Below, one piece after another: positions 8,254-9,454 of a stretch of DNA of 64,000 nt. Source of the stretch: Pseudomonadota bacterium. GTDB lineage: Bacteria > Myxococcota_A > UBA796 > GCA-2862545. The stretch spans positions 1-64,000 of the forward strand of contig SXOB01000036.1 in NCBI GenBank assembly GCA_005776945.1, given 5' to 3'. The notes under the pieces were generated by a model. The model searched no databases and had not been told where the DNA came from. It was given only the letters and a program-made list of their open reading frames with translations. Numbering within the stretch: position 1 is the stretch's first letter; each line of letters begins with the position of its first letter. Position numbers and translations under genes: made by a program.

Positions 8254-8784
8254 TCAGTCGAGCGAGGCGAGGTCCCGCTCCAACAACTGCATCAGCGGCT
8301 GGGGAACGTCCCGCATGGCAGCTCGCGCAGCGACGAAGCGTTGGCTGAGCGTTTGGCGTTCGTCGGGAGTCGCCGTGAACAGCTTGGAACCCCGGCAGCG
8401 AACGTGCCCACAGGTGCACGCGAAGGGTGTCTCGAAAGGCAGCGCGCAGTCGGCGTAGTCATTGGTCACCTGTTCGCCAGCCTGAATGTCGCGTAGCGCG
8501 ACTTCGAACCCGAACTCTGTGCCAGCAGCGTTGGGGTCACAGGCGTGATTCATCAGCCTGGCGTGATCCCAGGGCTGCCAGACTTCGTCGCGGACGCGGA
8601 GGGCCGTGTGGCTCAGGATTGGGCGCCAGACGTCGGGCCATGTCAGCACGGACGCGAGGGGCCAGGACGCGTCGAGGGCGTCACGAGCCCACACAATTGT
8701 GCCCTTGGGGATGGGGCGCAGCGCGACCACGCCCCGGCCAACGACGTCGGAGACGTGCGCAACGGCGAGATCGGGATGGATCAT
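8254..8784 (-). CDS. SET-domain protein (second of a tandem pair)
   Basis: A 176-residue SET-domain protein; SET domains transfer methyl from S-adenosylmethionine to lysine side chains. The SET core is clear: G-R-G-V-V-A near the start, the pseudoknot motif MNHACDPN (canonical N-H-S-C-x-P-N), and NDYA with the catalytic-type Tyr. A post-SET zinc-like C-T-C-G-x-x-x-C-R follows. The ATG at 8784 was chosen because its product MIHPDLAV matches the start of the upstream paralogue (MIHPATDV) and because it overlaps the TGA ending the reading frame downstream of that paralogue (ATGA at 8784-8781). Bacterial SET proteins of this small type are found sporadically. The target protein is unknown. Confidence 0.8.
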   Translation of the reverse strand: MIHPDLAVAHVSDVVGRGVVALRPIPKGTIVWARDALDASWPLASVLTWPDVWRPILSHTALRVRDEVWQPWDHARLMNHACDPNAAGTEFGFEVALRDIQAGEQVTNDYADCALPFETPFACTCGHVRCRGSKLFTATPDERQTLSQRFVAARAAMRDVPQPLMQLLERDLASLD

Positions 8785-8948
8785 CGTGTGGCCCACAGGC
8801 GGGTCGGGTCTGCGGCACCGCCCTGGACCGGTGAGCGTAGAAGGTACGCCAGACTTGGCGGCGGAATGAGGCGCCCGTCGCGCAAAGCGTCGATCCAAAC
8901 CCGGTCGCCCTCGGGCGGGTCCGCGAAGGGCAGCAGCGGTTGGGGGAC
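8781..8948 (-). pseudogene. in-frame continuation of the upstream SET gene beyond an amber codon
   Basis: Directly after the TAG of the upstream SET gene the same frame stays open for 55 codons, to a TGA at 8783-8781 that overlaps the next ATG. The segment has no ATG, GTG or TTG near its start. It begins VPQPLLPF, matching VPQPLMQLL in the neighbouring paralogue at exactly the same distance (28 positions) after the post-SET C-R pair. It continues GDRVWIDALRDGRLIPP, which reads as ordinary protein. The simplest reading is that it is the true C-terminus of the upstream protein, cut off by a nonsense mutation or base-call error at 8949-8951. Confidence 0.65.
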
Positions 8949-9422
8949 CTAGTAGGCGGCCGCCCAGGCGTCGGCCGCCCAGGCGTCCCATTGCGCGAGA
9001 TGGGCCGAGGCCTCGTCCGAGCGTACCTGCCGGCGGCACTTAGGGGCGCCGCACTGGCAGTCGAGCGTTCCCGTCATGTTCAGAACGCCGTAGTCGCAGG
9101 TCAAGGCATCCCCAGCTTCGATGTCTCGGCGCGCGACCTCAAGCGTTCGGCTCACGGCGACCGTGGCAGGGTCGCAGCTATGGTTCATCATGCGTCCCGC
9201 ATCCCAGCAGAAGATGAGGTCGCCGCCGGGGTCTTGGTAGCTGTACCGCTCGACGGCGCGGGCCAAGGCCGCAGGCAGGGTGTCCACCTGACCAGGTTGC
9301 ACGCGCCGATCGAGGCGATCGAGAACCCACAGTATGGTGCCCTTCGGGATCTTCGCGATCGCGAACACCCCGGCGCCGATGGTCTCGCTCACTTGGCGGA
9401 CGTCGGTCGCGGGATGAATCAC
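8949..9422 (-). CDS. SET-domain protein (first of a tandem pair), ends at an in-frame TAG
   Basis: A 157-residue SET-domain protein, presumably an S-adenosylmethionine-dependent lysine methyltransferase. Visible are G-A-G-V-F-A and PKGTILW (SET-N), MNHSCDPA (the canonical N-H-S-C-x-P motif), CDYG with the active-site Tyr, and the post-SET C-Q-C-G-x-P-K-C-R. It starts at the ATG at 9422 (MIHPATDV), the same start sequence as its downstream paralogue. The stop TAG falls where the paralogue has Asp. The frame then continues for 55 codons with clear similarity, so the ancestral protein was probably ~213 residues. The core SET domain is complete even in the short form, so it may still be active. 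It lies downstream of the Ig-like lipoprotein gene, with a hairpin between. Confidence 0.8.
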   Translation of the reverse strand: MIHPATDVRQVSETIGAGVFAIAKIPKGTILWVLDRLDRRVQPGQVDTLPAALARAVERYSYQDPGGDLIFCWDAGRMMNHSCDPATVAVSRTLEVARRDIEAGDALTCDYGVLNMTGTLDCQCGAPKCRRQVRSDEASAHLAQWDAWAADAWAAAY

Positions 9423-9454
9423 GGTGCCTCCGGCGACGTTTCACCATGCACAAA

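What the first reader, a model, noticed from the sequence alone, without database searches (positions are those of the whole stretch)
8781..9422. In-frame amber codon splits a SET-domain gene
After the TAG at 8951-8949 the frame stays open for 55 codons to a TGA that overlaps the next gene's ATG (ATGA), the coupling used throughout this window. The continuation starts VPQPLL. In the neighbouring SET paralogue VPQPLM stands exactly 28 positions after the post-SET C-R pair, and in this gene it also does if the stop is counted as position 28 (Asp in the paralogue). The gapless match shows the stop lies inside a once continuous gene: a fresh nonsense mutation, a base-call error, or read-through.
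Basis: seen in the sequence. Interest (0 to 1): 0.72.

Follow-up and report, generated by a model that had tools for sequence, protein, structure and literature searches.

The report
Recent stop codon in SET-domain gene
A bacterial methyltransferase-like gene in an uncultured myxobacterial relative carries one stop codon just before a part that every examined relative keeps, which is most simply a fresh knock-out mutation or a sequence error and so rather ordinary.

Summary
On the minus strand a SET-domain gene (A, from GTG 9422) meets TAG at 8951-8949 (codon 158); the frame then runs 55 codons to a TGA whose ATGA overlaps the next SET gene's ATG (B, 8784). None of 82 relatives examined has a stop at this codon; in all 82 the conserved arginine and the V-x-Q-P-L motif lie 28 residues apart and the Q and P are kept. 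Q161 and P162 are among the 9 invariant columns of a 73-row alignment. In 8 of 12 tandem A-B pairs from other genomes the genes overlap by the same ATGA, so the tail's TGA is the ancestral end. The stop interrupts a formerly continuous gene. No sign of recoding: TAG ends other genes, release factor 1 fragments are present, no CUA-anticodon tRNA among 37, no PylS above cut-off, no in-frame TAG in 140 family matches (one TGA). Best reading: a recent nonsense change that removes a conserved segment and probably uncouples B. A base-call error in this metagenome-assembled genome cannot be excluded; regulated read-through is possible but unsupported. Ordinary in kind; the conserved coupled SET pair is the more interesting by-product.

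The parts
8952..9422 (-). SET gene A upstream of the stop (157 codons, GTG start): SET and post-SET regions with N80, H81, Y111, R130 and the post-SET cysteines
   Evidence: Pfam SET E 7.8e-10; alignments; 3 of 41 conserved columns deviate, one of them the GTG start
9427..9431 (-). GGAGG, ribosome-binding-like sequence ahead of gene A's GTG
   Evidence: sequence
8949..8951 (-). in-frame TAG, codon 158
   Evidence: no stop at this column in 82 of 82 relatives
8931..8948 (-). VPQPLL, the conserved V-x-Q-P-L motif directly after the stop (codons 159-164)
   Evidence: Q and P in 82 of 82, V in 77, L in 76; Q161 and P162 invariant in 73 rows
8784..8948 (-). 55-codon tail after the stop, homologous to the C-terminal part of relatives
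   Evidence: shuffle z 6.7 for residues 159-195; AF2 pLDDT 95 for residues 161-170
8781..8784 (-). ATGA overlap of the tail's TGA with gene B's ATG
   Evidence: sequence; same overlap in 8 of 12 tandem SET pairs examined elsewhere
8254..8784 (-). SET gene B (176 codons), tandem paralogue; no clear Shine-Dalgarno before its ATG
   Evidence: Pfam SET E 5e-12; groups with gene B of Aquimonas voraii, support 96/89; upstream sequence

Best explanation
Gene A was a 213-codon SET-domain methyltransferase-like gene, the first of a tandem pair (A-B) joined by an ATGA stop-start overlap. In this genome codon 158 has recently become TAG. Shown: the stop interrupts sequence that relatives read through; the part after it is still homologous and still ends in the conserved ATGA. 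Inferred: the protein made is cut to 157 residues, losing the invariant Q-P motif and the C-terminal segment, so it is probably impaired; and ribosomes stopping 164 bases before B's ATG instead of at the ATGA should re-initiate there poorly, so B is probably under-produced. It is a strain-level polymorphism or the first step of pseudogene formation, not a programmed signal.
For: No stop at this codon, and Q-P directly after it, in 82 of 82 relatives from many phyla; 28-residue spacing in 82 of 82. Two of nine invariant columns of the family lie just after the stop. Little sign of decay elsewhere in gene A: 3 of 41 conserved columns deviate, no frameshift or second stop in the tail, and residues 159-170 fit the family better than 78% of relatives do. 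8 of 12 tandem pairs in other genomes end gene A in the same ATGA. Standard code: TAG ends 5 of 33 roughly predicted genes in the window, this one included; no TAG inside 140 ABC, response-regulator and kinase matches; RF1 fragments at two contig ends; no CUA tRNA among 37. Another in-frame stop, a TGA, interrupts a kinase in the same genome, so such lesions occur in it. Published work: in-frame stops in bacterial genes are widespread and mostly short-lived (PMC7918605, abstract and section 2.1 read); premature stops that leave 38 nt before the next gene cut re-initiation by 80-90% or more in E. coli (PMC10666635, abstract and one section read).
Against: No reads, second strain or same-species genome was available, so mutation is not separated from error. 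The only other genome of the genus held has no orthologue, so the age of the stop is not bounded. The tail's codon usage is weak: 4th percentile of coding windows, although its frame scores best of six. The tree gives A and B of this genome long branches (1.72 and 2.57 against a median of 0.66), which could mean relaxed constraint older than the stop. That the shortened protein is impaired is not shown; its model folds confidently (pLDDT 94).
Confidence: 0.62

Rival explanations
1. Base-call or assembly error: the living population carries a sense codon here and gene A is intact.
For: The genome is an incomplete assembly (92 contigs, 90.5% complete). Everything around the codon looks intact. 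A second isolated in-frame stop, TGA in a kinase, could be another error.
Against: Only 1 of 140 family matches in the same genome holds an in-frame stop, so errors of this sort are not rife; from general knowledge, consensus error in well-covered assemblies is low. Nothing here tests it directly.
Confidence: 0.24
2. Functional read-through: the TAG is kept as a brake, some ribosomes pass it and make full-length A and then B through the ATGA.
For: Motif and ATGA junction preserved after the stop. Published claims that some bacterial in-frame stops sit in genes under purifying selection (PMC7918605, abstract).
Against: No relative has a stop there; no suppressor tRNA found, though the set lacks some essential tRNAs and so is incomplete; no PylS above cut-off; no special RNA structure after the stop, z +0.49.
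Confidence: 0.08
3. The 157-residue protein is itself the working product and the C-terminal segment has become dispensable here.
For: SET catalytic positions and post-SET cysteines are intact; the shortened protein is predicted to fold with high confidence.
Against: Q161 and P162 are invariant in 73 rows; gene B of the same genome, although short, keeps VPQPLM.
Confidence: 0.05
4. TAG is read as an amino acid throughout this genome.
For: The frame continues as homologous protein after TAG.
Against: No TAG inside 140 family matches; TAG ends other genes; RF1 fragments present.
Confidence: 0.01

Closest known systems
In-frame stop codons in bacterial protein-coding genes (Belinky et al. 2021, PMC7918605)
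   Same: A single stop inside an otherwise intact, homologous reading frame; consistent with a short-lived, population-level change
   Different: Those authors concentrated on stops shared by two or more species; this one is seen in a single genome, so its persistence and selection could not be measured
Bacterial SET-domain proteins (Pfam PF00856)
   Same: SET and post-SET sequence and fold; N-H and Tyr positions conserved
   Different: This family adds a C-terminal segment with V-x-Q-P-L at fixed spacing; substrate unknown
BurB, methionine S-methyltransferase (PDB 9l4t, 9l4v; PMC12542666)
   Same: Best PDB sequence match of this protein (E 6.8e-5) and a similar fold (Z 10.6, rmsd 3.0, 125 residues); a small bacterial SET enzyme
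   Different: Sequence match covers residues 78-135 only; LLLHSC stands in BurB where this protein has MMNHSC. No evidence of the same substrate
ATGA-overlapping, translationally coupled gene pairs (Huber et al. 2019, 2023; PMC6728339, PMC10666635)
   Same: 4-base overlap between co-directed paralogous genes
   Different: Here the upstream gene is cut 164 bases short of the overlap; coupling itself was not measured

Membership tests
Gene interrupted by a nonsense change | Relatives encode a sense codon at the stop position | tested here: met
   82 of 82 relatives
Gene interrupted by a nonsense change | Homology continues in the same frame after the stop | tested here: met
   Q and P in 82 of 82; shuffle z 6.7 for residues 159-195 and 4.3 for 167-195
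Gene interrupted by a nonsense change | The stop is really present in the organism's DNA | not testable with these tools
   No reads and no second genome of the species
Programmed stop-codon read-through | Stop conserved in relatives | tested here: not met
   0 of 82; among 31 match rows of 28 genomes, the other rows with a stop have it at their natural end, after the motif
Programmed stop-codon read-through | Decoding machinery or stimulating RNA structure | tested here: inconclusive
   No CUA tRNA among 37 but the set is incomplete; PylS below cut-off; RNA fold z +0.49
SET-domain methyltransferase (PF00856) | Match above curated cut-off and N-H / Tyr positions | tested here: met
   39.6 and 46.6 bits against 22.4; N80, H81, Y111 invariant
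SET-domain methyltransferase (PF00856) | Methyl transfer activity | not testable with these tools
   needs an assay
BurB-type methionine S-methyltransferase | Full-length relationship and shared active-site residues | tested here: inconclusive
   Sequence match over 58 residues, fold match up to residue 140; substrate-site residues were not compared one by one
Translationally coupled A-B pair | 4-base ATGA overlap conserved in other genomes | tested here: met
   8 of 12 co-directed adjacent pairs examined; the others have gaps of 3, 12, 13 and 26 bases

The most novel reading that the evidence does not exclude
The TAG is a retained expression brake in a coupled SET-A/SET-B operon: rare read-through makes full-length A and, through the ATGA, matching amounts of B for a heteromeric methyltransferase, while most translation yields a short A with a separate role.
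Probability: 0.06. Interest if true: 0.55.

Novelty: new member of a known kind. Interest (0 to 1): 0.24.

Why it matters
As a single stop in one metagenome-assembled genome it matters little: it warns annotators that the gene should not be ended at codon 157 without comment, and it flags a conserved C-terminal motif that a plain SET annotation misses. Of wider use is the by-product: a small bacterial SET family with an invariant Q-P inside a V-x-Q-P-L segment, often in tandem A-B pairs with a conserved ATGA overlap across several phyla, which makes a heteromeric bacterial SET enzyme a testable idea.

Tried and rejected
Genome-wide recoding: rejected on TAG use as a terminator, 140 family matches without in-frame TAG, RF1 fragments at contig ends C31 and C88, and no PylS above cut-off. 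PylS hits below cut-off occur in most control genomes too.

Selenocysteine was not considered because the codon is TAG. Frameshift by-pass: gene B's frame is open for 85 codons upstream of its ATG, so a shift could in principle give an A-B fusion, but it would not encode V-x-Q-P-L; left as unlikely.

RNA structure after the stop: none beyond shuffles. Synteny with the only other genome of the genus: the hydrolase and the repeat protein next door are kept, no SET gene is found there, so gain and loss cannot be told apart. Function from neighbours: 100 neighbouring ORFs of relatives scanned (of 143 picked), with ABC_tran in 10, SET in 5, CN_hydrolase in 3 and no single answer. BurB was read up as a lead (PMC12542666: abstract and passages) and not adopted. 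Codon-usage test of the tail: weak and partly against (an earlier version trained on only 4 ORFs was discarded).

Of 22 rows with two SET genes, 12 pairs were examined; the rest are the window itself, duplicates, opposite-strand or separated pairs.

Full report
What is there. On the minus strand, gene A begins at GTG 9422 with GGAGG nearby and reads 157 codons to TAG at 8951-8949. The frame then stays open for 55 codons to TGA 8783-8781, which overlaps the ATG (8784) of a second SET gene, B, as ATGA. Both proteins match the Pfam SET domain above the curated cut-off, 39.6 and 46.6 bits against 22.4. The window lies in a 92-contig, 90.5% complete genome; its order also holds a genome recorded as Myxococcota (G024, whose matching contig has the length of L042's).

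Is it more than chance? The openness of 55 codons is not: 57% of random 55-codon stretches in this window are open. The homology is. I aligned the read-through frame with 82 relatives: gene B, 80 loci of named genomes and one viral-contig locus. None has a stop at codon 158; the column itself is variable, with 14 residue types. Directly after it come V (77 of 82), any residue, Q (82 of 82), P (82 of 82) and L (76 of 82). The distance from the conserved arginine to this motif is 28 residues in 82 of 82. The 13 full-length relatives taken from nearby genomes also read through this codon and keep the Q. In a 73-row alignment the invariant columns are M1, G28, D74, N80, H81, Y111, R130, Q161 and P162. 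Further into the tail homology is weaker but real: residues 167-195 score 4.3 standard deviations above shuffles of themselves.

Where the gene ends. Second SET genes stand next to the first in several relatives. Of 12 co-directed adjacent pairs examined, 8 overlap by the same 4 bases, ATGA, in hosts recorded as gamma- and alphaproteobacteria, Myxococcota and others; the other four have gaps of 3, 12, 13 and 26 bases. In a 47-row tree, B of this window groups with B of Aquimonas voraii (96/89) inside a loose group of ten B genes (84/49, not firm); A genes do not form one group. So the TGA after the 55-codon tail is most likely the ancestral end of A, and the TAG is premature.

Is the code unusual, or is this read-through? 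TAG ends 5 of 33 roughly predicted genes in the window, this one included. Searches of the whole genome with three large families gave 58, 28 and 54 matches with no TAG inside; one kinase has an in-frame TGA after the VALKVP stretch. Pieces of release factor 1 sit at the ends of contigs C31 and C88, as if the gene had been split by an assembly break. None of 37 tRNA genes has a CUA anticodon, but no Phe or Asn tRNA appears in those listings either, so the set is incomplete and a suppressor is not excluded. PylS matches stay below the cut-off. The RNA around and after the stop folds no better than shuffles, z +0.49. Among 28 of 377 genomes of the phylum with a match, the stops marked inside other rows are natural ends beyond the motif.

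How old is it? Gene A shows little decay: 3 of 41 conserved columns deviate, one being the GTG start, against 10 of 41 in gene B. Residues 159-170 fit the family better than 78% of relatives do. Against this, the tail's codon usage is weak, 4th percentile of coding windows, residues 171-195 fit the family worse than 92% of relatives (as the SET part does, 91%), and both genes have long branches in the tree. The single other genome of the genus has no orthologue, so no date can be set.

Consequences. The full frame is predicted with pLDDT 96 and 95 over residues 151-160 and 161-170 and falls below 60 after residue 200, so the lost motif is likely part of the folded protein; this confidence rests on the relatives in the alignment. 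The cut protein alone also gives a confident SET model. Known structures match up to about residue 140; the C-terminal part was barely tested by that search. Gene B has no clear Shine-Dalgarno sequence and now starts 164 bases after A's stop. Published tests in E. coli found re-initiation cut by 80-90% or abolished at 38 bases (PMC10666635, abstract and one section), and premature stops before the overlap prevented downstream translation in Haloferax gene pairs (PMC6728339, passages). That B is under-produced here is therefore a fair inference, not a result.

Verdict. A formerly continuous gene is interrupted; I put that near certain. A real recent nonsense change is the best reading (0.62), an error of base or assembly the chief rival (0.24). 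In-frame stops of this sort are reported to be widespread and mostly short-lived in bacteria (PMC7918605, abstract and section 2.1). The finding is sound but ordinary. I did not search the literature specifically for this A-B pair beyond the SET-domain searches (listings only), so I make no claim that the pair is undescribed.

Noticed in passing
L219 (G000:C32:10600-13600), about 616-1365: A kinase-domain gene in the same genome has an in-frame TGA just after its VALKVP stretch, with kinase motifs continuing in frame: a second isolated nonsense lesion or error.
   Followed up: partly
L026, L027, L028, L036, L039, L045, L030, L204: Tandem SET genes overlapping by ATGA in genomes recorded under several phyla: a possible heteromeric SET enzyme.
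   Followed up: partly
L029:3656-5815 and L087:3576-5714: A transporter with ABC membrane, ABC ATPase and cyclic-nucleotide-binding domains recurs next to this SET family (cNMP_binding in 6 of 100 neighbours scanned).
   Followed up: no
L064:3567-5213, L038:3581-5233: A GNAT acetyltransferase fused to a carbon-nitrogen hydrolase follows the SET gene in some relatives.
   Followed up: no
G000:C31 end and C88 end (L216, L217): Release factor 1 appears as two fragments at contig ends, probably an assembly break.
   Followed up: partly
window 8785-9039, minus strand: Gene B's frame is open for 85 codons upstream of its ATG, overlapping gene A; probably chance in GC-rich DNA.
   Followed up: no
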